Origin: Blastococcus sp. TF02A-35
GTDB lineage: Bacteria > Actinomycetota > Actinomycetes > Mycobacteriales > Geodermatophilaceae
Direction: 5' to 3'
DNA length: 38,189 nucleotides
Assembly: GCF_004571075.1 (NCBI RefSeq)
Contig: NZ_SPQP01000036.1
Span: forward strand, 1 to 38,189
The translations under genes and the position numbers were made by a program. Below, in pieces: positions 3,317 to 15,660 of the stretch. The notes under the pieces are model-generated. The model was not told the origin of the DNA. It saw only the letters and a list, made by a program, of their open reading frames with translations, and ran no database searches. How positions within the stretch are numbered: position 1 is the first letter of the stretch; each line of letters starts with the position of its first letter.

Positions 3317-3795
3317 CCCCGGCGCACGCGGCGCGACCCGGTTGACCCTCGGAACGGGCCACGGGCCGTCTGATCAGTTCCTGTGGACAACGGGTTGCCG
3401 CCCAACGGGTCGTGCGTGTCTGGCTGTGCACGGCCCGGCCACGTGGCACGGCCCGCGCCGGCGAGGTCGAGGACCCGCCGTCCGATGCGGGTGCGTGTCC
3501 CGAAGTGCAGCCGTGCGCCCTCGACGGGGCCGGCGCGTGCGCAGCGGACGGGAGCTGCGGAGCGACTCACGCGGCCACCCGCCGCCCGGCCGATCATGGT
3601 TTTCCGGAACTCCACGGAACCGCCACGCCCAGCGGCGACGCCCAGTTGTCGGGCCGGGCCTCTAATCTGCGCCGAAACCTGCCGGAGCGGCACCAGACGA
3701 TTGCGGCGAGTTGACCTGCCGAGGACCGTCGGCAGCACGACAGGGCGCCTGCAGTGCGCCGCAGCTCTGGCAACCAGCAACCGAGGGAGGAAGAC
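3317..3795. other. Wadjet upstream region, no gene seen
   Basis: About 480 bp between the RbpA-like stop and the jetA start. Apparent open frames are arginine/proline-rich and lack ribosome sites. The promoter of the jet operon should lie here. TTGACC at 3341-3346 and TCTAAT at 3661-3666 resemble -35 and -10 hexamers but are not correctly spaced with a partner, so I do not assign a promoter. The jetA ribosome site GAGGGAGG is at 3783-3790. Confidence 0.45.
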
Positions 3796-5334
3796 GTGAG
3801 CGACATCGCCGGGGAGCTCGCACGCGTCCGCGGCGCGTTCGACCAGCCGACGCTCACGCTCCTGCACCGGAGCCTGGCGCCGGTCGTCATCGCCATCTTC
3901 CGCAGCTCGTTCGGCCGCGACACCCGCAGCATCCCCGCGCCCCGGCTGCACGACCAGGTCGACGCCTACCTCGACGAGCTGCGCCTGGCCGGAGTCCCGG
4001 CCGCCAACCTGCCGGCCGGCTCCGGCCGCGACCTGTGCCTGAAGTGGATGCACGGCCAGTGGCTGGTGCGCAGCACCGCCGACGACGGCAGTGAGGTGTA
4101 CTCGCTGACCTCCCACGCGCAGGACGCCCTCGCCCTCGTCACCAGCCTCACCCGGGAGCGGGCCAGTCTGTCCGAGCACCGGATCTCCACGATCCTGTCC
4201 GCGGTCCGCCGGTTCAACACCGAGGTCAACCCCGACCGCGCGGCCCGCGTGAGCATCCTCGACAGCGAGATCGAGCGCCTGACCGCGGAACGCAACCGGC
4301 TGCTCGACGGCGGGGAACTGCCCCAGGTCTCCCCGGACTACATGCTGGAGGGCTACAGCGAGCTGCTGCAGCTCATCGCGGCCCTGCCCAGTGACTTCGC
4401 CCGGGTGGAGGAGGCGTTCACCGGGCTGCGGGCCAGCATCCTGGCCTCCTTCCGGGCCGAGGAACGGCCGGCCGGTGAGGTCATCGACGACTACCTGGCC
4501 CGCGCCGATTCCCTGATGGCCGCCACCCCCGAAGGGCGAGCGTTCGAAGGCGCGTTCGCGCTGCTGCGCGACGAGGCGCTGCTGCTGCAGCTGCGCGAGG
4601 ACCTCGGCGCGCTGCTGGCGCATCCGCTGGCCAGCGACATCCTGCTCGACGCCGACCGGCGCGAACTGCGCGGCACGGTCGGGCTCATCCGCAGCGGCAT
4701 CGTCAGCGTCCTGGCTCGGCGGAGCCGGGTCTCTGCCGCGCTGCGCGAGTACATCGTCACCCACGACATCACCCGCGACCGGGAGCTGGACGCCACGCTG
4801 CGCCAGCTCGACGCCGAGCTGGCCACCTGGATGAAGACCGCCGGCCCCCGCGCGACGGTGCCGCTGGAGCTGCTTCCGCCCCGCGTTGAGGTGACCCACC
4901 TGCGGGAGCGGTTTCACAACGCCGAGACCGAGGTCGGGCCGCCGCCGCTGGCGGATGTGAGCGAACACCGGCCGGACGCGGTGTCGCTGACCGAGCTGCT
5001 CGCGCAGGGCGGGCCGTCCCTGAGCACTTTGCGGGCCGAGCTGGCCAGGGCGCTGGCCGACCCGGAACCCATGACTTCCCTCGGCGCGCTGTTCGACCAG
5101 CTCGATCCGGAGCTGCGCCGGCCGGTGGAGATCTTCGGCCTGCTGCACCTGGCGACGAACTCGGTGGGGATGGACCGGCACACCGACACCGAGACCTACC
5201 GCGCGGTGCGGCCCGACGGCACCGAGCGGGCGCTGGCCGTGCCGCGGGTGGCGCCGGCCGACGCCCCTGTACCGCCTACTGACCCCGACGCGCAGCCACC
5301 GGCACTGGCGACGGTCCCCGAGGAGAACCGATGA
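3796..5334 (+). CDS. jetA: Wadjet type I protein JetA (DUF3375, kleisin-like)
   Basis: A 512-aa protein. An ATG 42 bases upstream is in frame, but I choose GTG 3796 because GAGGGAGG lies 5 bp before it and the product then begins SDIAGELARVRGAF, a usual JetA-like start. It matches the DUF3375 pattern. An N-terminal helical region contains L-x-L-L-H-R, A-P-V-V-I-A-I-F-R and D-x-Y-L-D-E-L. A winged-helix-like segment follows near residues 70-100, then coiled coil (about 150-190) and a long helical C-terminal half ending in a Pro-rich tail. In Wadjet, JetA is the kleisin-like linker joining two JetC ATPases and JetB into a loop-extruding SMC complex. jetB starts inside its stop codon (ATGA), so the two are translationally coupled. 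Confidence 0.93.
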   Translation: MSDIAGELARVRGAFDQPTLTLLHRSLAPVVIAIFRSSFGRDTRSIPAPRLHDQVDAYLDELRLAGVPAANLPAGSGRDLCLKWMHGQWLVRSTADDGSEVYSLTSHAQDALALVTSLTRERASLSEHRISTILSAVRRFNTEVNPDRAARVSILDSEIERLTAERNRLLDGGELPQVSPDYMLEGYSELLQLIAALPSDFARVEEAFTGLRASILASFRAEERPAGEVIDDYLARADSLMAATPEGRAFEGAFALLRDEALLLQLREDLGALLAHPLASDILLDADRRELRGTVGLIRSGIVSVLARRSRVSAALREYIVTHDITRDRELDATLRQLDAELATWMKTAGPRATVPLELLPPRVEVTHLRERFHNAETEVGPPPLADVSEHRPDAVSLTELLAQGGPSLSTLRAELARALADPEPMTSLGALFDQLDPELRRPVEIFGLLHLATNSVGMDRHTDTETYRAVRPDGTERALAVPRVAPADAPVPPTDPDAQPPALATVPEENR

Positions 5335-6125
5335 GCGAGCTCGACACCGCCGACGGACAGACGCCGGGCGGCTATCCGCTCCACGGCGACACCGGCGACG
5401 CCGACCTGCACGAGCCCAGTTGGGCCGGCGAGGCGATCGACGCCGACGACCCCGACCGTGAGCTCTCCTCGACCGTCGCGCTGTTCGAGGGCGACGAGGG
5501 CGGGCTGGAGGTCGACCAGCGCCGCGCGCTGGTGGTTCTGCTCAAGCAGCGGTTCATCAGCGCCCGGACCCATCCCAAGGAGTGGCGGGCGCTGATCCGT
5601 CAGCCTCGGCCGATCCGTGCCCGGCTCAACGACCTGTTCCTCGAGCTGCACCTCGACGCCGACCGCGAGGTCGCCTACAAGCGGCAGGTCAACCCCGAGG
5701 GTGGCGGCCGACCGTTCCCCACCCTGCTGTACGACGCACCGTGGGGCCGGGAGGACACCATCCTGCTGGTCTACCTGCGCAGCCGCTTCCGCAGCGAGCA
5801 GGCCGCCGGGGCCGACCGGGTGTTCGTCGACCGCGACGACATGGTCGAGTTCGTCGACCAGCACCGGCCACCGCACGCCACCGACCAGTCCGGTGACCGC
5901 AAGCGCGCGGCACGGGCGATCGAGGCGCTGTACAAGGCGGGCTTGCTCATCGGGGCGAGCACCGGCGAGCGGTTCGAAGTCAGCAACGCCATCGAGGTGC
6001 TGCTGCCCATGGAGAAGCTGACCGAGCTGCTGGCCTGGCTGCGCGCGGAGAACAGCACCGCCGGCGATGCCGAGCTCACCGACCCCGACGGCGCCGCACA
6101 CGCCGACGTCCACGACGAGAGCTGA
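5331..6125 (+). CDS. jetB: Wadjet type I protein JetB (DUF4194, KITE-like)
   Basis: A 264-aa protein starting in an ATGA overlap with jetA; AGGAG at 5321-5325 gives a good ribosome site. The first ~45 residues are acidic and low-complexity. The DUF4194 core spans about 50-240: a helix with RRALVVLLKQRFI, a segment around the Asp-rich L-F-L-E-L-H-L-D, then tandem winged-helix-like features (TILLVYLRSRF, RAIEALYKAGLL, N-A-I-E-V-L-L-P-M). This resembles the KITE subunits of SMC complexes such as MukE. JetB dimerises on JetA to help load the complex on DNA. The end is 3 bp before jetC. No key region appears missing. Confidence 0.92.
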   Translation: MSELDTADGQTPGGYPLHGDTGDADLHEPSWAGEAIDADDPDRELSSTVALFEGDEGGLEVDQRRALVVLLKQRFISARTHPKEWRALIRQPRPIRARLNDLFLELHLDADREVAYKRQVNPEGGGRPFPTLLYDAPWGREDTILLVYLRSRFRSEQAAGADRVFVDRDDMVEFVDQHRPPHATDQSGDRKRAARAIEALYKAGLLIGASTGERFEVSNAIEVLLPMEKLTELLAWLRAENSTAGDAELTDPDGAAHADVHDES

Positions 6126-6128
6126 CCG

Positions 6129-9100
6129 ATGACCACCACCGACCACCGCGACCCGCCCCTCGCCGACGAGGGCCACGCCGACGCCCTGACCGACGCCGTG
6201 CCCGGCGATGACACGCTGGCCCACGACGCCGGGCTGCTGTTCCACGTCGACGGCGCCACCGAGGGCACCACGCAGTGGAAGGCCGAGACCTTCCAGCTGG
6301 TCAACTGGGGCGGGTTCGAAGCCCGCGTCCCGTTCCACTTCCACCCCGGCTCCACCCTGATCTCCGGCGGCTCGGGGACCGGCAAGAGCACTCTGTTGGA
6401 TGCCTACATCGCGCTGATGATGCCGGCGGACACCCCGTTCAACGGCGCGTCCAACGACGCCGTCGGCGGCCGCGCCCGCTCGGCCGAGCAGCGGAACCTG
6501 CTGACCTACCTGCGCGGGCAGATCGACACGACCACCGGCGCCGACGGCCAGGAGAAGGCCAAGGTGCTGCGCGGGGAGGGCACCGCAACCTGGGGTGCGG
6601 TCGGCATGACGTTCATCGACGATCACGGCCGCCGGTTCACCGCGTTCCGGGTGTACTACGTGCCTGCCCGCGCCCGGCGCACCGGTGACATCACCATGCG
6701 GATGGCCACCTACGACGGCGTGCTCGACCTGGCCAGCCTTGCCGAGCACATCGGCTCCGGTGACCAGCACTTCGCCCCGAAGGCGCTCAAGGCCGCCTTC
6801 GCCGGGCTGAAGACCCACGACAGCTACGCGTCGTTCGCCAACACGCTGCACACCCGGCTGGGCATCGGCGCCAACGGCGACGGCGCCAAGGCGCTACGGC
6901 TGCTGGTCCGCATCCAGTCCGGGCACCAGATCCGGACCGTCGACGAGCTGTACAAGGAGATGGTGCTGGAGCGGCCGGCGACCTACGCCGCCGCCGACAG
7001 CGCCATCGAGCACTTCGACGACCTCGAGGCGTCCTACCTGACGATGCAGACCGAGCAGCAGAAGGCGCAGCTGCTCGAATCGATCACCGAACGGCAGGCG
7101 TCCCTGCTCGCAGCCCGCGCCGAGATCGACGCGATCGACACCTTCGGGCTGACCCGCACCGGGGACACCCCGATCGGGCTGTGGCGGCTGCGGACGGAAA
7201 AGACGCTGCTGGCCGACGCCGTCGACGCCAACGCGACCGCACGCGCTGAGAACGGGGACCTGCTGCGCCGAGCGGTGACCACCGAGCAGGAACTGGCCCA
7301 AGAGCTGAAGGCCCGTACCGACGAGCACCTGCGCAACGGCGGCGCCGACCTCGAGCGGCTCGCCGCGGAGATCGAAGCGGCCGAGTCCGTCCGCGACGAG
7401 CGGCGGACCCGGCGCAGCGCGCTGGCGCAGCGGACGACGGTGCTGGGCGCGCCGCTGGGCAGCCGCACGGACTTCGTGAAGCTCCGCGCCGCCGGCCGCA
7501 CGTTCCTCGACGGGTTCGAAGACGCCGCGGTTGAGTTCGGCCGCCGTCGGCACGCGCTGCTGAAGGAACAGTTCCCCCTCGCCGACCGCAAGCAGAAGCT
7601 CATCGAGGAGCGCCGGTCGTTTGCCGGGCGGACCGGGCGGATGCCGAAGTTCTTCGACGACATGCGCCGGCAGGTCGCCGCCGCCGCCGGGATGGACCCC
7701 GCCGAGCTGCCATTCCTGGCCGAGCTCATCGACGTCGCAGACGAGCACGCCCGGTGGCGGATCGCGGTCGAGACCGTCCTCGGGGGCGCCGCCCGGCTGC
7801 TGCTGGTCCCCGCCGAGCGACTGGAGGAGTTCTCCGCCGCGATCGATCCCCTGCACCTGCGCGGCCGGATCGAGTTCGAGGGCGTCCCCTCGGCGCCGCA
7901 CACCGCCCGCCGGCTGGACCCGTCGCGGGTCGCGGGGAAGCTGGCGTTCAAGGACCACCCGTTCAGCGAATGGGTGGCCCGGCACGTGTCGGCCGAGACC
8001 CGCAATGCGCTGTGCGTAGAGTCCCCCGCCGACCTGCGCGGCGGCGGGTACCGGGTCACCCTCGCCGGGCAGACCCGCCGCGGAGCCCGCGGCAGCCATG
8101 GGCGCGCCGACTCCTCGTCGATCATCGGCTTCTCCAGCGCGGAGACGATCGCGGCCATCGACGCCGAACTCGCCGAGCTCGAGCGGAAGCTGACCGCCCT
8201 CGACGGGCAGCTGGGCGACCTGGACCGCGAGCAGGGCGACCTGGACCGGACCCGCCTGGCCTACGAGGCGATCGACGCAGCGGTGTTCGACGACATCGAC
8301 GTCGCGGGCATCGAGACGCGCATCGGGGAGCTGACTGCCGCCCGGGCCGCGATCCTGGAAGCCGACGACGTGCTGCGGGCGCTGGAGAAGCACATCGCCG
8401 ACCTCACCGAGCGGCTGGAGACCGCGCGGCAGACCCGGTACAAGCTCAAGAGCATCGCCGAGGACCTGAACACCGAGCACGGCAACCTCGCCGAGCAGCA
8501 GGACGAGACCAACCTGGAGCTGTACCGGATCGAGGACGAGGGCCTGATCGTCCTCGACGACGAGCAGGTCATGCGGCTGGACAAGGAGTTCGCTGCGGCG
8601 GCCACCGACGGCGACCCGGGGAGCCTGGCCGACTTCGGCGCGAACCTCGCCCGGATGCGGCGGCGGCTGTCGGAGGCACTGGACCGCGCCCGCGCCGACG
8701 CCGACCGCGCCGAGGGCGATCTGCGCCGGACGTTCGAGGCCTACCAGCTGAAGTGGGAGGACCCCAACCTCGGCGTGACCCCGGCGTCCTACCCGGACTA
8801 CGCGCGCATCCTGGACAACATCGTCACCACCGGCCTGCACGCCCGCCGCCTCGAGTGGCGGAACCGGCTGACCGAGTGGAGCGGCCAGGACCTGGTGCCG
8901 CTGGCCGGCGCGATGGAAGCCTCGGTCGACGAGATCGAGGACCGCCTGGACCCCATCAACGACATCCTCGCCACCCTGCCCTTCGGCGCCGGTCGCGACC
9001 GGCTGCGGATCAAGCTGCGCCGGCTCACCCCCGACCACGTCACCTCCTTCCGCCGCGAGCTGCGGACGCTGTCCTCGGCCGCCACCAAGGGGCTGCCCGA

Positions 9101-9623
9101 GAACCAGATGGAGCGACGGTTCGCCGAACTGCAGCAGTTCATGGCGCAGATCCGGCGCCGCGACGACCCGCGGGCCATCGCCGACGTGTCCGACCGCGAC
9201 CGGCTGCTCGACGTCCGCCGGCACGTGGAGATCACCGCCGAGCGGTACAACGCCGACGGGCAGCTGCTCAGCGTCCACTCCACGCTCGGCGGCAAGAGCG
9301 GCGGCGAGAGCCAGGAGCTGATCGCGTTCATCGTCGGTGCGGCGCTGCGTTTCCGCCTCGGTGACGAGGTGCGCGCCCGTCCGCGGTTCGCCCCGGTGTT
9401 CCTCGACGAGGGGTTCGTCAAGGCCGACGCCGAGTTCGCCGGCCGCGCGGTGCAGGCCTGGAAGGGGCTGGGGTTCCAGCTCATCGTCGGCGCGCCGCTG
9501 GACAAGGTGACCGCGCTGGAGCCGCACATGGACGAGCTGCTGGCCATCACGAAGAACACGACCACCGGCTTCTCGTTCGTGGCGCGGCTCAAGGACGCCA
9601 TCGTCACCGGCGAGCCGGCGTGA
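6129..9623 (+). CDS. jetC: Wadjet type I ATPase JetC (SMC/MukB-like)
   Basis: A 1164-aa protein. The Walker A motif GGSGTGKST is at residues 80-88. After a globular N-terminal head come long heptad-rich coiled-coil arms (about 290-500 and 680-870) flanking a hinge-like middle. The C-terminal head carries the ABC signature SGGESQE (about 1057-1063) and Walker B P-V-F-L-D-E (Asp/Glu about 1093-1094). This is the standard SMC plan and matches JetC in size. In Wadjet, JetC drives DNA loop extrusion using ATP so that small circular DNA is recognised. It starts 3 bp after jetB, and its stop overlaps the jetD start (GTGA). All catalytic motifs look intact. Annotation pipelines may label it SbcC/MukB-like, but the neighbours identify it. 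Confidence 0.94.
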   Translation: MTTTDHRDPPLADEGHADALTDAVPGDDTLAHDAGLLFHVDGATEGTTQWKAETFQLVNWGGFEARVPFHFHPGSTLISGGSGTGKSTLLDAYIALMMPADTPFNGASNDAVGGRARSAEQRNLLTYLRGQIDTTTGADGQEKAKVLRGEGTATWGAVGMTFIDDHGRRFTAFRVYYVPARARRTGDITMRMATYDGVLDLASLAEHIGSGDQHFAPKALKAAFAGLKTHDSYASFANTLHTRLGIGANGDGAKALRLLVRIQSGHQIRTVDELYKEMVLERPATYAAADSAIEHFDDLEASYLTMQTEQQKAQLLESITERQASLLAARAEIDAIDTFGLTRTGDTPIGLWRLRTEKTLLADAVDANATARAENGDLLRRAVTTEQELAQELKARTDEHLRNGGADLERLAAEIEAAESVRDERRTRRSALAQRTTVLGAPLGSRTDFVKLRAAGRTFLDGFEDAAVEFGRRRHALLKEQFPLADRKQKLIEERRSFAGRTGRMPKFFDDMRRQVAAAAGMDPAELPFLAELIDVADEHARWRIAVETVLGGAARLLLVPAERLEEFSAAIDPLHLRGRIEFEGVPSAPHTARRLDPSRVAGKLAFKDHPFSEWVARHVSAETRNALCVESPADLRGGGYRVTLAGQTRRGARGSHGRADSSSIIGFSSAETIAAIDAELAELERKLTALDGQLGDLDREQGDLDRTRLAYEAIDAAVFDDIDVAGIETRIGELTAARAAILEADDVLRALEKHIADLTERLETARQTRYKLKSIAEDLNTEHGNLAEQQDETNLELYRIEDEGLIVLDDEQVMRLDKEFAAAATDGDPGSLADFGANLARMRRRLSEALDRARADADRAEGDLRRTFEAYQLKWEDPNLGVTPASYPDYARILDNIVTTGLHARRLEWRNRLTEWSGQDLVPLAGAMEASVDEIEDRLDPINDILATLPFGAGRDRLRIKLRRLTPDHVTSFRRELRTLSSAATKGLPENQMERRFAELQQFMAQIRRRDDPRAIADVSDRDRLLDVRRHVEITAERYNADGQLLSVHSTLGGKSGGESQELIAFIVGAALRFRLGDEVRARPRFAPVFLDEGFVKADAEFAGRAVQAWKGLGFQLIVGAPLDKVTALEPHMDELLAITKNTTTGFSFVARLKDAIVTGEPA

Positions 9624-10810
9624 AGACCCCCGAGCAGGTCGTCGCCGACATTCAGCGGCGGGTGAAGAACACCTGGGCGGCAACCCTGACCGGCACCGCC
9701 GAGGCGCCGGCGTGGCCGCAGGCGTTCCCGCTCGGGGAGCCGAGCTCCGCCGCGCTCGCCGCCGACTTCGCCGACGCCGCCCGGCTGGTCCGCGAGTGGC
9801 GGACGTGGGCCGAACATCGCGGCCTGCAGCTGCGGTGCGCGAACCGCCGCGTCGCCGGCACCGACCAGGAGCTGCCCACGCACGTGCTGGTGCCCGACCT
9901 GGACACCGCGCTCCGGGTCATCCCCGACGAGTGGTCCGACCGGATCACCCGCGGCCGGCAGCGGGCCGCGGTCCTGGCCGACCGCTACCCGCATCTGAGC
10001 CAACCCACCCACACCCTGGGCGCCGTCGACAAGCTCACCGACGTCGACTTCGACCTGCTCTGCCAGGCCGCGGACTGGTTCGCCACCCATGACGCCACCG
10101 GGCTGACGCCGCGCCAGGTGCCGATCCCCGGACTGCACGCCAAGTGGCTCAACACCCGCCTGGCGCTCGCCCGCGAGCTCGCCGGCGTCGACGACCTCGG
10201 GCTGCTGCCGAACCACCCGGCCCGCATCCACTTCACCTACCTCGACCCGACCCACCGCGCTGCGGGCGGCCGGCTGTACGACTCCGCGACCGTCGGCGAC
10301 CGGATGCAGCTGCCGTACCGGCCCGAGGTCGTGATCATCAGCGAGAACAAGGACACCGCCATCCACTTCCCGCCCGTGCCCGGCGGGGTGTCGGTCGAAG
10401 GCGCCGGCACCGGTGGCGGCACCGCCGCGTCGTTCGACTGGATCGTGACCGCCTCGCGGGTCATCTACTGGGGCGACATGGACGCCGACGGCCTGGAGAT
10501 CCTCGACGGGTTCCGCGACGCCGGCGTACCCGCCGCGTCGATCCTCATGGACCCGACCACCTACGACGCCTGGGAGCGCTTCGGCACCAACGTCGACAAG
10601 AACGGCAAACCGCTCGGCCCCCGCTCCCCGCGGCCAGTGCCGCACCTGACCGAGGACGAGCGCATCCTATACCACCAGCTCATCGCGTCCGACTGGACGC
10701 GGCACCGCCGCGTGGAGCAGGAGCGCATCCCACTGCAGGTCGCGCTGGACCACGTGCTCGACGCCACGGCACCCCGGTCGCCGCAGCGCCCGACGGGAGC
10801 CCCACGATGA
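9620..10810 (+). CDS. jetD: Wadjet type I nuclease JetD (DUF3322/DUF2220, Toprim-like)
   Basis: A 396-aa protein starting at a GTG overlapping the jetC stop. The N-terminal two-thirds is DUF3322-like: helices around residues 40-120, a DFDLLCQAADWF segment at 144-154 and G-L-H-A-K-W-L near 171-177. The C-terminal DUF2220/Toprim-like region has Glu242 in S-E-N-K-D and the acidic D-M-D-A-D at 286-290. Together these form the metal site shared with topoisomerase VI A and Toprim enzymes. JetD cleaves plasmid DNA once JetABC has extruded the whole circle. The catalytic acids are present, so the operon appears functional. A 42-aa frame begins in an ATGA overlap at its stop, which is not part of known Wadjet loci. 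Confidence 0.93.
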   Translation: MKTPEQVVADIQRRVKNTWAATLTGTAEAPAWPQAFPLGEPSSAALAADFADAARLVREWRTWAEHRGLQLRCANRRVAGTDQELPTHVLVPDLDTALRVIPDEWSDRITRGRQRAAVLADRYPHLSQPTHTLGAVDKLTDVDFDLLCQAADWFATHDATGLTPRQVPIPGLHAKWLNTRLALARELAGVDDLGLLPNHPARIHFTYLDPTHRAAGGRLYDSATVGDRMQLPYRPEVVIISENKDTAIHFPPVPGGVSVEGAGTGGGTAASFDWIVTASRVIYWGDMDADGLEILDGFRDAGVPAASILMDPTTYDAWERFGTNVDKNGKPLGPRSPRPVPHLTEDERILYHQLIASDWTRHRRVEQERIPLQVALDHVLDATAPRSPQRPTGAPR

Positions 10811-10967: not shown

Positions 10968-11480
10968 ATGGCCGCAACCACGTCTCCGCCGCCCGCCGGC
11001 TACAGGCAGCTGCTCGATGACTTGCAACGGCAGGTGCGCTCGTCGAGGGCCGCAGCCCGCGTCGCCGTCAACAGCGAGATGCTCGCGCTGTACCGCACGA
11101 TCGGTCGTAGCCTGCTCGACCGCACCCACGACGGCTGGTCGGCCGAGGCCATGGAGCGGATGGGCGCCGACCTGCGCGCGCAGTTCCCCGACTTGGTCGC
11201 CCTGTCGCCGGGCAACCTGGACTACATGCGGCGCTTCGCCGAGGTCTGGCCGGACCCGGCGACCGCCCCGCCGCTGGAGCACCTGCCCTGGGGGCACATC
11301 CGCGTCCTACTCGACGAGGTCGCCGACCCGCTCGCCCAGGACTGGTACGCCGCCGAGGCCGTGCGGTACGGCTGGTCGGAGAACGTGCTGCGGCACCAGA
11401 TCCTCAACCACGCTCACCACCGCGGTCGCGGCGACCTGCGCGCCCTTGGGAAGCCGCCGGAGCCCGCCCGGCGTCTCTGA
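10968..11480 (+). CDS. DUF1016 N-terminal domain protein (YhcG-like, nuclease domain missing)
   Basis: A 170-aa protein. The sequence G-Y-R-Q-L-L-x-D-L, A-A-R-V-A-V-N-S-E-M-L-A-L-Y-R-T-I-G, M-E-R-M-G-A-D-L-R-A-Q-F-P and LPWGHIRVLLDEV covers the helical N-terminal domain of the DUF1016/YhcG family. Complete members run to about 350 aa and end in a PD-(D/E)XK nuclease domain. Here the frame stops after L-R-H-Q-I-L with a short Arg/Pro tail, so the nuclease half is gone. The DNA just beyond carries a fragment of an unrelated gene on the other strand. DUF1016 genes often sit near restriction-modification and other defence loci, as here. It is probably a non-functional remnant, though a stand-alone DNA-binding role cannot be excluded. 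Confidence 0.7.
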   Translation: MAATTSPPPAGYRQLLDDLQRQVRSSRAAARVAVNSEMLALYRTIGRSLLDRTHDGWSAEAMERMGADLRAQFPDLVALSPGNLDYMRRFAEVWPDPATAPPLEHLPWGHIRVLLDEVADPLAQDWYAAEAVRYGWSENVLRHQILNHAHHRGRGDLRALGKPPEPARRL

Positions 11481-11895: not shown

Positions 11896-12522
11896 TCAGC
11901 TGCCCTTGGCCGCCACGTCGTCGCGCAGCCGGGTCTCCTTCCACGGCCGCAGCGACTCCCCGTACGGCTCAATGGCGTCATAGACCGCCTTGACCTCGGC
12001 CCGGGTCTGCAGACCGGAGACCTGCAGCCGGTGCCCGAGCAGCAGCAGCTGCTCGATGTCGATCACACCAAGGCCCTCGGCGTCCGCGCGGTCGCTGCCG
12101 GTCTGCTCGTCCATCAGGACGTACACGCGCCGGCCCGCGTCACGCAGCACGATGCCGTGCCCGATCACCAGGTGCTCGCCCAGATCCTTGCGGGCGCCCA
12201 GGGCGAGGGCCGCGTCGGTACCGCGCAGCCGGGCGACGGTGTCGCGGACCGCGGCCTGATCGGCGCGGTCGATGGTGATCTTCTCCAGCACCCGTACGCG
12301 GTCGTGGGCGATGAACCTGCGCCACGGGGCCGGCAGCGCCGGGTACTTCCCCTTCTTCCCCAGGACCTCCTCCGACACCTCCGCAGGCACCTGGATCTCC
12401 CAGTTGAGCTTCATGAGGATGGCCAGCAGCAGTCCGGCCTTGCCGGCCGCGCAGAAGTGGATGCAGCAGACGGCGTCCAGCAGCGCGACCGGCTCGGCGG
12501 CCGGTGATTCGGGCGCGCTCAC
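11896..12522 (-). CDS. PIN-like domain protein (candidate toxin)
   Basis: A 208-aa protein from a GTG that overlaps the upstream gene's stop (GTGA at 12519-12522). PIN-like features are visible: a hydrophobic strand ending in Asp16 (V-A-L-L-D-A), Glu48 in V-P-A-E-V-S-E-E-V, a G-T-D-A-A-L-A-L-G-A helix near 101-110, then V-L-M-D-E-Q (Asp138) and G-V-I-D-I-E-Q-L-L-L-L-G. This spacing of acids fits metal-dependent PIN ribonucleases. Two Cys-rich residues follow the first Asp, which is unusual. Coupling to an XRE/ImmA-type gene resembles toxin-antitoxin pairs in which the metalloprotease-fused regulator is the antitoxin. The RNA substrate is unknown. I am fairly sure of the fold and less sure of toxicity. 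Confidence 0.65.
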   Translation of the reverse strand: MSAPESPAAEPVALLDAVCCIHFCAAGKAGLLLAILMKLNWEIQVPAEVSEEVLGKKGKYPALPAPWRRFIAHDRVRVLEKITIDRADQAAVRDTVARLRGTDAALALGARKDLGEHLVIGHGIVLRDAGRRVYVLMDEQTGSDRADAEGLGVIDIEQLLLLGHRLQVSGLQTRAEVKAVYDAIEPYGESLRPWKETRLRDDVAAKGS

Positions 12523-13715
12523 CGCTCCGGCGCGGCCAGGGCGAGCAGCTCCTCGATGCTGGCCAGGCCCGCTGGCGCGCGCCGGGCCGGCGCCTCGCTG
12601 AGCAGTTCGCGGTCGGCTTCCACCTCGGCGACGGTCCGCCCCTCCAGGTCGGCCAGGACGGCCGCGCCGAGCAGGCCGCGCGCGTAGGCGTCCGCGGCCC
12701 GCCGGGCCAGGCGCCGCGGCGGCCGCGGGCGCCGGGCAGCGGCCTGGGTGGCCTCGTACTCGGCGCGCCAGCCGTACCGGCTGGCCATCACCGGGGTGCT
12801 CGGCACCGCCGGCGCCGGCCGCAGACCCATCCGCTCCAACTGGATCCGCACCACCTCGGGCGTCACCCCGAAGTACCGCGCCAGGCGCCCGACGGCCTCC
12901 TCCTCCACCGGGCCGGTGTCGGTTCCCGCGGTGCGGCGCAGCCACAGCCGCACGCCGTCGGCGGGCACGAGCAGGTTGCGCGCGAACTCGTTGCACCGGG
13001 TCTCGGCCTCGCCGGTGCCGGCGTCCAGGCCGTCGATGTGGGCGCCGTCGCCGAACAGCAGGTGCCCCAGCTCGTGCGCCACGGTGAACCGCTGCCGCTC
13101 GGCCGGCTCGTCGCTGTTGACCACCAGCAGCCGGGTCAGCCGGGCCTCGTCGACCAGGCACATGCCCGAGACGGCCGGCAGCGGACGGGTGGCGACGTCC
13201 ACCCCGGTGACCTCCTCCACGAGTTCGGCCAGCTCGGACAGCTCCGGGATGGGCGCCGCCCCGAGCCCGAGCACCTCGCGCAGCGCGTCGGCCAGCTGCG
13301 CACCGCGCGCCGACGCGCTGCCAGCCACTGGCGCGGTCACCGGCAGAGCGGCCGCCCGCTGGCGATGCTCCGCGATCACCGCATCGAGCCGCTCGTCGAG
13401 CTCGAGCAGCTGCACACCGGCCTCGATCGCCGCCCGCCGGTCCGGATGCGCCGGGGCTGCGGCCCGGAGCGCGACCAGCACCCGCTCAGCGACCCCGCTG
13501 CCGTACAGCAACGTGTCCAGCGGCATCTGCAGCGTCCGGGCGAGCGCATCGGCCTCGACCAGGCTGACCCCGCGCTGCCCCTGCTCGATCCGGGAGACGG
13601 TGGCCTGCGAGACGCCGGCGGCGATGGCCAGGGCGGTCTGGTTCATGCCCGCTGCCTGGCGCGCGCGGCGCACACGGTCAGCGACCGCTGCCACGTCGAC
13701 GTCCTTGGTACTCAT
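12519..13715 (-). CDS. XRE regulator fused to ImmA/IrrE-type metallopeptidase
   Basis: A 398-aa protein. I choose ATG 13715 because GAGGAGG lies just upstream and the product then begins directly before the HTH; an in-frame ATG at 13742 would sit inside the operator. Residues about 10-65 form an XRE helix-turn-helix (R-Q-A-A-G-M-N-Q-T-A-L-A, G-V-S-Q-A-T-V-S-R-I-E-Q-G). A helical linker follows. The COG2856/ImmA-IrrE zinc peptidase has H-E-L-G-H at 214-218 and a downstream E-T-R-C-N-E-F-A-R-N-L-L segment giving the third ligand. Such proteins repress their own operon and cleave repressors, or act as antitoxins. The next gene is coupled by GTGA. A perfect 8-bp inverted repeat lies between the start codon and the likely promoter, consistent with autorepression. 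Confidence 0.88.
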   Translation of the reverse strand: MSTKDVDVAAVADRVRRARQAAGMNQTALAIAAGVSQATVSRIEQGQRGVSLVEADALARTLQMPLDTLLYGSGVAERVLVALRAAAPAHPDRRAAIEAGVQLLELDERLDAVIAEHRQRAAALPVTAPVAGSASARGAQLADALREVLGLGAAPIPELSELAELVEEVTGVDVATRPLPAVSGMCLVDEARLTRLLVVNSDEPAERQRFTVAHELGHLLFGDGAHIDGLDAGTGEAETRCNEFARNLLVPADGVRLWLRRTAGTDTGPVEEEAVGRLARYFGVTPEVVRIQLERMGLRPAPAVPSTPVMASRYGWRAEYEATQAAARRPRPPRRLARRAADAYARGLLGAAVLADLEGRTVAEVEADRELLSEAPARRAPAGLASIEELLALAAPER

Positions 13716-13727
13716 CCTGCCTCCTCG

Positions 13728-13756
13728 CTGAATAGACCCCATCGTCCACTATTCAG
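13728..13756 (-). promoter_or_regulatory. Candidate XRE operator (8-bp inverted repeat)
   Basis: CTGAATAG at 13728-13735 and CTATTCAG at 13749-13756 form perfect 8-bp arms separated by 13 bp. The AT-rich arms stand out against the surrounding GC. The site ends about 13 bp upstream of the XRE gene's ATG, overlapping where its promoter and leader must be. Binding by the XRE domain would give autorepression. This is inferred from position and symmetry. Confidence 0.6.
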
Positions 13757-14110: not shown

Positions 14111-14866
14111 TCAACGCCGCCACATGCTCCAGCGACGCGGGGCCGAACCAGGCCGTCCCACCGTGATCCACTGCGCCGGACCTGCGGCGACGGGCATGTC
14201 GGCCGGCCAGTCCACGGGTCGCCGCGCCAGCTCCTCGGTCGCGATCGCCCCCTCGAGCTCGGCCACCACCGCAGCCTCCAGCCCATCGGCCGTCAGAACC
14301 TGTGGGAGCGGCGGCGCCGGCATCCGAAAGGCGCGCGCCGTGGCGGCCATGTCCTCGTGGGCCCCGGCGTACGCGGAGTCCAATCGCCCCAGCTGCGGAT
14401 GCCACGCTCCGAGCACCACGGTCAAGACCTCACCTGGACCCGGGGTTAGCGTCAGCGCCTCGAACTCGAGGTCGTCCGTGCCGCGGAACGCGCGCAACCG
14501 CAGGTACTGCCAACGTCCGCGCCGGGCCGCGACGGCCACGACGACGTCCCACAAGGTCTCGTTGACAGCCAGCAGATCGGGAACGTGGGGACGTAGTTGG
14601 CTGCTCGCCGCGAGCATCACGCCGCTCACCACGCGCGTCGCCGACTCCACGTCATGCTGCCCATCGAGACCGGCCAGGACGTCGGCGAGCAGGTCACGGC
14701 CCTCGAGGGTGGCCAGGCCGGTGAGCAGCACCGCGCAGTCGCCGCGCCGGCCGACCTTGGCCGCGGCGGCCTGCCCATCCGGTGCCCCCTCGCGGAACTC
14801 GGTTCGCAGGCTGTCAGCGGCGAGGACAGCACCACCGGCCGTTAGAGCGGCAACGGCAAGGGTCAC
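14111..14866 (-). CDS. Proteasome/HslV-type Ntn-hydrolase-like protein
   Basis: If translation starts at GTG 14866 (GAGAG about 9 bp upstream), the second codon is Thr. Counting that Thr as residue 1, Asp17 falls in A-V-L-A-A-D-S and Lys36 in A-A-K-V, followed by A-V-L-L-T-G-L-A. This mirrors the Thr1-Asp17-Lys33 arrangement of HslV and proteasome beta subunits, in which the initiator is removed to free the nucleophile. The mature protein would be 250 aa. An ATG at 14926 is also in frame and would put 21 residues before that Thr. The C-terminal ~100 residues are unfamiliar. No ATPase partner (HslU, Mpa/ARC) is nearby; the adjacent genes are the XRE-protease/PIN pair and the repeat array. The assignment rests on motif spacing only. 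Confidence 0.55.
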   Translation of the reverse strand: MTLAVAALTAGGAVLAADSLRTEFREGAPDGQAAAAKVGRRGDCAVLLTGLATLEGRDLLADVLAGLDGQHDVESATRVVSGVMLAASSQLRPHVPDLLAVNETLWDVVVAVAARRGRWQYLRLRAFRGTDDLEFEALTLTPGPGEVLTVVLGAWHPQLGRLDSAYAGAHEDMAATARAFRMPAPPLPQVLTADGLEAAVVAELEGAIATEELARRPVDWPADMPVAAGPAQWITVGRPGSAPRRWSMWRR

Positions 14867-15019
14867 ACCGCCGGACTCTCGCACGACGCGGTGCAGCGCC
14901 CTGCCACGCAACACACCGAAGGCCATGGAGGCAGCGTCGGCCCGTCCGCGCTGCTCGCACCGGGCGACACCCGCCGACCGCGGGCTGCCAGGGCTACCAG
15001 GGGCGGAGCCCAACGGAGC

Positions 15020-15135
15020 GAGTTGCGTTTGCCAAGAGTTGCTTGTGTCAAGAGTTGCCTCTGCCAATCTGCCCGCGTTTGTCAACGCGCAACTCCTAGT
15101 TGGCAAGGCGCAACAGTTGGCAGCTGGCGCAACTC
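15020..15135. repeat. Array of 16-bp GAGTTGC...TGYCAA units in both orientations
   Basis: Three head-to-tail 16-bp units occupy 15020-15035, 15036-15051 and 15052-15067. Each begins GAGTTGC and ends TG(C/T)CAA. A diverged unit follows at 15068-15085. The inverted form then appears at 15079-15095 (TTGTCAA ... GCAACTC), 15100-15114 (TTGGCAA ... GCAAC) and 15117-15135 (TTGGCA ... GCAACTC). The units carry no spacers, so this is not a CRISPR. It may be a cluster of protein-binding sites, an iteron-like origin or centromere, or a recombination zone. It lies upstream of the Ntn-hydrolase gene and covers the 3' end of the M23 gene. Confidence 0.8.
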
Positions 15136-15660
15136 CGAGCGTGGCAATCTCGTGCAATTGCTCAGCAGTCGCACCCGTGGCGGCCGGAGCACCAGGAGCG
15201 GGTCGAGGTAGGCCTCACCGCGGCGCAGGCCCCAGTGCAGGCAGGCGGCCGCCGGGCAGCCGGGGTGCCCGGGGGCGAGCCTGCCCAGGGGGTCGCCGCG
15301 CCTGAGCGGCTGGCCGGCGCCGACCACGGCCTCCACCGGCTCGTACGTCGTCCGCAGGCCGCCGGCGTGGTCGACGCTGACGACCGGCCGGCCGGCCACC
15401 GTGCCGGCGAAGACGACGACCCCGTCGCCGGCGGCGAGGACCGGCGAGCCCGCCGGCCCGGCCAGGTCGGCGCCCCGGTGGCCCGGCCCGTAGGCGTGAG
15501 GTGGTGGCTCGAACGGCCGGGTGACCAGCAGGTCACCGGCCAGCGGGGCCGACCACCCCTCGGCGGGCCGGGCCGTGGGCGCCGGGTCGGCCGTCGCCGG
15601 CGCGGCGGACAGCACGCCCGCGGCGAGCGCGACGAGCACGGCGGCGAGCGCGGACCTCAT
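15082..15660 (-). CDS. Secreted M23-family peptidase with replaced C-terminus
   Basis: A 192-aa protein from ATG 15660. Residues 1-26 are a signal peptide (basic start, Ala/Leu/Val core, A-P-A-T-A-D cleavage region). The LytM/M23 domain follows, with H-R-G-A-D-L-A-G, G-D-G-V-V-V-F-A-G, V-S-V-D-H-A-G-G-L and C-L-H-W-G-L-R-R-G. The HxxxD and HWG signatures give the zinc ligands. M23 enzymes cut peptidoglycan cross-bridges outside the cell. In actinobacteria this gene is commonly divergent from rpsB, as here. After L-D-P-L-L-V-L-R-P-P-R-V the last ~28 residues are encoded by DNA reaching into the repeat array. They do not look like the family's usual end, suggesting the original stop was lost at the island junction. 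Confidence 0.82.
   Translation of the reverse strand: MRSALAAVLVALAAGVLSAAPATADPAPTARPAEGWSAPLAGDLLVTRPFEPPPHAYGPGHRGADLAGPAGSPVLAAGDGVVVFAGTVAGRPVVSVDHAGGLRTTYEPVEAVVGAGQPLRRGDPLGRLAPGHPGCPAAACLHWGLRRGEAYLDPLLVLRPPRVRLLSNCTRLPRSELRQLPTVAPCQLGVAR

What the first reader, a model, noticed from the sequence alone, without database searches (positions are those of the whole stretch)
15020..15135. Tandem and inverted 16-bp unit array at the edge of a defence island
Three exact-period 16-bp units (GAGTTGC ... TG(C/T)CAA) are followed by a diverged unit and at least three inverted copies (TTG(G/T)CA ... GCAACTC) within 116 bp, without spacers. No feature I know explains it. It sits exactly where accessory DNA meets the M23-rpsB chromosome and upstream of the Ntn-hydrolase gene. 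It could be a multi-site operator, an iteron-type origin or centromere, or an integration hot spot.
Basis: partly seen in the sequence, partly recalled or inferred. Interest (0 to 1): 0.75.

Follow-up and report, generated by a model that had tools for sequence, protein, structure and literature searches.

The report
Small mobile-looking repeat array
A 145-base cluster of short direct and inverted repeats sits where accessory DNA meets the end of a cell-wall enzyme gene; rare single copies of the same cluster lie at unrelated places in other species of this bacterial family, so it looks like a travelling DNA-binding-site cluster rather than a local control switch.

Summary
The array is real and longer than described: about 145 bp (15020-15164), built from a bipartite unit GAGTTGC-N3-TGCCAA(TC), three copies in tandem and then looser copies facing them. 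It is single-copy in its genome and was not found in the 22 other held genomes of its genus. Homologues occur once per genome in 8 other Geodermatophilaceae genomes (9 of 112 with the own one), beside unrelated genes; none turned up in 393 other genomes of the class or in the phage, plasmid and viral-contig searches made. So it is tied neither to rpsB/M23 nor to the Ntn-hydrolase. Its right end is a sharp junction (...CTCA|) with three different targets: M23 in the window, a catalase fragment, and DNA 9 bp past a relaxase stop codon, where it ends a 6.4-kb insert that five fetched relatives lack. I found no second array, no target duplication and no shared transposase gene. Best reading: a non-autonomous mobile-DNA end, a cluster of sites for a transposase or recombinase acting in trans. 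It resembles the repeat-array ends of Tn7/Tn5053-type transposons but is not shown to be one. Mechanism confidence about 0.45.

The parts
15020..15164 (+). whole array element (about 145 bp, 57% G+C in a 73.5% G+C window)
   Evidence: right terminus ...TGCTCA shared with G102 and G069 (G061...CTCCTCA)
15020..15035 (+). direct unit 1 GAGTTGC-GTT-TGCCAA
15036..15051 (+). direct unit 2 GAGTTGC-TTG-TGTCAA
15052..15069 (+). direct unit 3 GAGTTGC-CTC-TGCCAATC
15079..15095 (-). inverted unit TTGTCAA...GCAACTC
15100..15114 (-). inverted unit TTGGCA...GCAAC
15117..15135 (-). inverted unit TTGGCA...GCAACTC
15141..15164 (+). right terminal segment GTGGCAATC...TGCTCA, similar in the four full copies
15165..15660 (-). 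M23 peptidase gene (start taken as the Met at 15660); its frame runs into the array and stops there at 15082, giving a 26-residue foreign tail
14111..15157 (-). Ntn-hydrolase-like ORF left of the array (its listed start lies inside the array; the real start is probably further in).

Best explanation
The array is a rare, horizontally spread, non-coding element of about 145 bp: 6-7 copies of a bipartite site (GAGTTGC-N3-TGCCAATC), three in tandem and the rest mostly facing them. SHOWN: homologues at unrelated loci, one per genome; half-sites conserved better than spacers; a sharp right terminus (...CTCA) joined to different targets; in one genome it is the right edge of a 6.4-kb insert that fetched relatives lack. 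INFERRED: the sites bind a transposase or recombinase supplied in trans; the array is the end (or all that is left) of a non-autonomous mobile element; in the window its right end lies in the M23 gene's 3' end, with the accessory block to its left.
For: Homologues: DNA; model R1. In one search, 12 of 112 family genomes pass E 0.01; I count 9 as real (33-125 bits) and dropped G087, G121 and G122 (19-21 bits), a second G115 match (18.5 bits) and two antisense matches to the same copies in G069 and G102. Seven of the nine trained the model; G043 and G064 did not. Four copies are full length, G115 and G043 are diverged, G065, G057 and G064 hold only the left ~80 bp. 1 of the 23 held genomes of the own genus has it. 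Unrelated contexts. Right junctions: in 17 of 17 fetched relatives M23 goes on CTGCT(G/C)CC or CTCCTCCC, in the window CTGCTGAG; G102: piece of a long-catalase gene (family); G061: an integrase/relaxase element that in 5 of 5 fetched relatives has about 30 bp where G061 has 6.4 kb ending in the array (TrwC relaxase). Half-sites 0.84 versus spacers 0.68 mean column identity in 6 copies. PMC8649781 (passages): arrays of about 20-bp inverted repeats holding transposase-binding sites lie at the ends of Tn7, Tn5090, Tn5053 and Tn552.
Against: No target-site duplication in 6 of 6 copies tested: at most 3 bp, as in random pairs. No second array or left end about 50 kb left and 30 kb right of the copies of G102, G069, G061, G064 and G057 (terminal motif within about 10 kb). 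No gene shared by all loci; no transposase among the 11 window ORFs scanned. One copy per genome, where mobile repeats usually multiply. G061 lost about 30 bp of target, so that insertion may be a rearrangement. Conservation of M23 among relatives itself fades within a few bases of the window junction, so the M23 cut removes little.
Confidence: 0.45

Rival explanations
1. Small palindromic element of the ERIC/REP/Rickettsia-palindrome sort whose single-strand hairpin (DNA or RNA) matters, not protein-binding repeats.
For: As DNA the four full copies fold better than shuffles on average (z -2.3 to -3.8; in G061 5 of 200 shuffles fold as well). With a fixed hairpin 5 pairs change on both sides, reached by 13 of 500 shuffles, and 86.5% of cells pair, reached by 19 of 500; slid versions pair far less, as expected of a structure derived from these sequences.
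Against: RNAalifold covariation term is positive, i.e. unfavourable; G061 folds poorly as RNA (z -1.3); any array of facing repeats folds, and concerted change of the half-sites explains the double changes as well; no Rfam family above its gathering score.
Confidence: 0.17
2. Arm-type binding sites of an integrase next to an attachment core; the island entered by site-specific recombination at the M23 3' end.
For: Array on one side only of a sharp junction; the G069 right flank resembles an M23 3' end (suggestive only); the G057 copy lies 285 bp from a tyrosine integrase, and the G057 and G069 copies lie on contigs with many pieces of that integrase and its downstream DNA.
Against: Targets differ (M23, catalase, downstream of a relaxase) with no common core that I could see by eye; in the fetched relatives of the G057 integrase locus the similarity ends before the array; no integrase among the 11 window ORFs scanned.
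Confidence: 0.12
3. Multi-site operator for a regulator (for example the XRE/IrrE protein of the island) controlling a neighbouring gene.
For: Bipartite repeated sites; XRE gene in the window (12519-13742) and an XRE-cupin gene 0.9 kb from the G115 copy.
Against: Neighbour genes differ between loci; among the neighbour ORFs scanned no further XRE gene appeared (two AraC-type regulators did, both near G061); in the window and G102 the right end falls inside coding sequence.
Confidence: 0.12
4. Iteron origin or centromere left by an integrated plasmid or conjugative element.
For: Single copy per genome, accessory surroundings, G061 copy inside an element with a TrwC relaxase.
Against: No match of two copies in 72,556 plasmid records; no rep/par gene recognised among the neighbour ORFs scanned; facing orientation and variable spacing are unusual for iterons (recall).
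Confidence: 0.07

Closest known systems
Repeat-array ends of Tn7/Tn5053/Tn552-type transposons (PMC8649781, passages read)
   Same: Cluster of about 20-bp repeats in both orientations, near a sharp terminus ending in CA; defence genes beside it in the window
   Different: No partner end in the spans searched, no target duplication, no tnsB/tniA gene seen; the array stands alone
MITEs (PMC10969869, passages read), including ERIC and Correia elements
   Same: Short, non-coding, dispersed, facing repeats; truncated copies occur
   Different: One copy per genome, no target duplication, no parent element found; made of subrepeats rather than one terminal inverted repeat pair
Integrase arm sites at attP of integrative elements (recall)
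   Same: Several short sites on one side of a junction
   Different: Different targets without a core visible by eye; no constant integrase neighbour

Membership tests
MITE | short, no protein-coding gene | tested here: met
   125-145 bp in the six copies measured; longest stop-free stretch 48 codons; 82% DNA but 54% protein identity between window and G102 speaks against coding
MITE | terminal inverted repeats | tested here: inconclusive
   both ends carry a TTGC half-site facing inward, but not a clean inverted pair
MITE | target-site duplication | tested here: not met
   6 of 6 copies: nothing longer than 3 bp, as in random pairs
MITE | parent transposase element with the same ends | tested here: inconclusive
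   none seen with model R1 in 112 family genomes or in the fetched flanks; a distant parent is not excluded
Tn7-like transposon end | array of about 20-bp repeats in both orientations at one end | tested here: met
Tn7-like transposon end | second end with the same repeats | tested here: not met
   none about 50 kb left and 30 kb right of the copy in five genomes; larger elements are not excluded; in the window the contig stops 15 kb to the left
Tn7-like transposon end | tnsB/tniA-type transposase in the element | tested here: inconclusive
   none among 11 window ORFs scanned; flanking ORFs of the other genomes only partly scanned
ERIC/REP-like palindromic element | many copies per genome | tested here: not met
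   one per genome
ERIC/REP-like palindromic element | conserved hairpin with compensatory changes | tested here: inconclusive
   disagree
Iteron replication origin | adjacent rep gene | tested here: inconclusive
   no rep gene recognised among the neighbour ORFs scanned, which are a part of all

The most novel reading that the evidence does not exclude
An undescribed Geodermatophilaceae mobile system whose only conserved part is a single array-type end: the end is cut precisely, is joined to host genes (at or just past a gene's 3' end in the window and G061, and perhaps G069; inside a catalase gene in G102), and carries whatever DNA lies behind it, including a Wadjet defence island.
Probability: 0.18. 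Interest if true: 0.7.

Novelty: new variant of a known kind. Interest (0 to 1): 0.45.

Why it matters
If the array is a one-ended or trans-mobilised terminus, it gives a sequence handle for finding mobile defence islands in this family, and it predicts an unknown enzyme that binds GAGTTGC-N3-TGCCAATC. It also shows how an array at an island border can be recognised as travelling DNA by cross-genus comparison.

Tried and rejected
Rejected: fixed feature of the M23-rpsB interval (not at the M23 end in 17 of 17 fetched relatives; no model match in the 22 other held genomes of the genus, whose filters can lose weak copies); random scatter; known RNA family (four weak matches, none at the array, none above gathering score); plasmid or phage relative (two copies as queries); viral contigs (exact-pattern scans only: 18, 27, 6 and 0 stretches; the model gave those loci at most 15 bits, so I take them as chance); Ntn-hydrolase as partner. 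Class-wide search: only the own genome of 394 matched at E 0.001 (strict filters). Genome-contig pattern scan: 11 contigs, 3 real (Geodermatophilus obscurus, G. amargosae, Modestobacter caceresii); of the other 8 the best scored 14.9 bits; the pattern was too strict to see most copies. A shared left end, terminal motif or second array: not found. A shared neighbour gene: of 372 ORFs three groups span at least 3 genomes, at most 5, by my reading ABC-transporter ATPase, short-chain dehydrogenase and alcohol dehydrogenase, taken as background. The G069 M23-like flank is weaker than I first thought: its best score, 45.4 bits, equals the best of 300 random flanks. For that reason I lowered the integrase-arm rival from 0.14 to 0.12 and the novel case from 0.20 to 0.18. 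The regular expression parsed only 13 of 17 relatives; one search covers 17 of 17. In one search one of the 14 half-site segments was set one base off; the 0.84/0.68 contrast is as computed. Literature: (listings; passages of two papers) showed nothing on such an array in this family; these few searches do not show that it is unpublished.

Full report
OBSERVATION. The sequence 15020-15164 holds three head-to-tail 16-bp units followed by facing units with looser spacing. The unit is bipartite, GAGTTGC-N3-TGCCAA(TC). Three successive 16-mers matching at 13/16 or better occur nowhere else in the window and in 0 of 60 shuffles (at 12/16, 1 of 60). In the whole genome the exact unit occurs only here. 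With up to 3 mismatches the window as a whole is not enriched (21 hits, 17.1 expected), so the sites are not scattered as a regulon would be.

HOMOLOGUES. A DNA search of 112 family genomes gave six other genomes below E 1e-4. A sequence model, R1, built from these six and the window passed E 0.01 in 12 of 112 genomes. I keep nine (window genome, G102, G069, G061, G115, G065, G057, G043, G064) and drop three weak ones (G087, G121, G122; 19-21 bits; the two of these printed show no units). Seven of the nine trained the model and match it by construction; G043 and G064 did not. Every kept genome has one copy; the second matches in G069 and G102 are the same copies read on the other strand, and a second G115 match has 18.5 bits. 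The other 22 held genomes of the own genus gave no match. Among 394 genomes of the class only the own one matched at E 0.001 (strict filters). No match was found in plasmid or phage records with two copies as queries. Named holders are Modestobacter caceresii, Geodermatophilus obscurus and G. amargosae.

ANATOMY ACROSS COPIES. Window, G102 and G069 are 75-78% identical to each other over the aligned 150 columns; G061 is 65-70% identical to them; G115 and G043 are 50-61% identical to the rest. Half-sites are better conserved than spacers (0.84 versus 0.68). In G043 several A half-sites end in CTTGC instead of GTTGC, a change repeated across the array (my reading); a binding protein's shifted preference or concerted evolution would give that. 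The hairpin evidence is mixed: folding is mostly better than shuffles, the covariation term is unfavourable, double changes somewhat exceed shuffles.

JUNCTIONS. I fetched 17 relatives (16 of the genus, 1 of the family) of the 35 other genomes matched. In 17 of 17 the M23 gene goes on CTGCT(G/C)CC or, once, CTCCTCCC, i.e. Leu-Leu-Pro; the window has CTGCTGAG and runs 26 codons into the array. Beyond that point the relatives differ from each other, with tails of 2 to 327 residues in the 13 that could parse, so little of M23 is lost. In G102 the array ends against a piece of a long-catalase gene (44 bp plus a further C-terminal piece, with a gap; family). In G061 five of five fetched relatives have an integrase/relaxase element with about 30 bp where G061 has 6.4 kb whose right edge is the array, 9 bp past the relaxase stop. 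In G069 the right flank resembles an M23 3' end (66 bp, 76%; 22 of 25 M23 loci hit at that place, my count), while its intact M23 is on another contig. This is only suggestive: the score, 45.4 bits, equals the best of 300 random flanks. The array ends ...TGCTCA in window, G102 and G069 and ...CTCCTCA in G061. No target duplication was seen (6 of 6).

SURROUNDINGS. The left flanks share nothing at E 1e-6. No second array was found about 50 kb left and 30 kb right of five copies (best cluster outside 23 against 36-152 for the arrays of these genomes). The other copies lie on contigs of 13-38 kb. No gene is common to the loci (372 ORFs). The G057 and G069 copies lie on contigs with several pieces of one integrase or its downstream DNA; G061's copy lies inside an integrative element. 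The window's accessory part holds a type I Wadjet set, a DUF1016 protein and an XRE/IrrE protein (the JetA/JetB names for DUF3375/DUF4194 are recalled). So several of the arrays live in mobile, accessory DNA.

READING. The facts fit a cluster of sites for a DNA-moving enzyme, as at the ends of Tn7-, Tn5053- and Tn552-type transposons (PMC8649781, passages), better than an operator, an iteron or a fixed chromosomal feature. But the second end, target duplication and enzyme are missing, so I do not file it as a member of that family or as a MITE. What is shown is presence of homologous arrays at unrelated loci and a precise right terminus; the enzyme and the mechanism are inferred.

Noticed in passing
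window 3754-10810: Type I Wadjet set: DUF3375 and DUF4194 proteins (JetA, JetB by recall), JetC and JetD (PADLOC); a DUF1016 protein (PADLOC PDC-S02) follows at 10968-11480.
   Followed up: partly
window 12519-13742 (-) and ORF within 11896-13161 (-): XRE plus IrrE/ImmA-type protein like RmrA (PADLOC; RosmerTA by recall), with a neighbouring unassigned ORF that could be its toxin partner.
   Followed up: no
G064:C1:2639-2680 kb; G057:C23; G069:C17 283-357 kb; G061:C10: Several Geodermatophilus genomes hold clusters of intact and broken copies of one tyrosine integrase and of a downstream piece of about 125 bp, apparently a tandem-integration hot spot.
   Followed up: partly
L070:3145-9562: 6.4-kb insert in an integrase/relaxase element next to tRNA-Ile/tRNA-Ala, carrying by reading a serine hydrolase, an FAD monooxygenase, an alpha/beta hydrolase and an AraC-type regulator (the last by Pfam).
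   Followed up: partly
window 15082-15164: The M23 reading frame gains a 26-residue tail encoded by the array; the first 46 residues of the Ntn-hydrolase ORF as listed also lie in the array.
   Followed up: yes
L071 and L145: Two of the arrays (G115, G064) lie about 10 and 4 kb upstream of a tRNA-Pro gene followed by a trigger-factor-like gene (gene name by reading).
   Followed up: no
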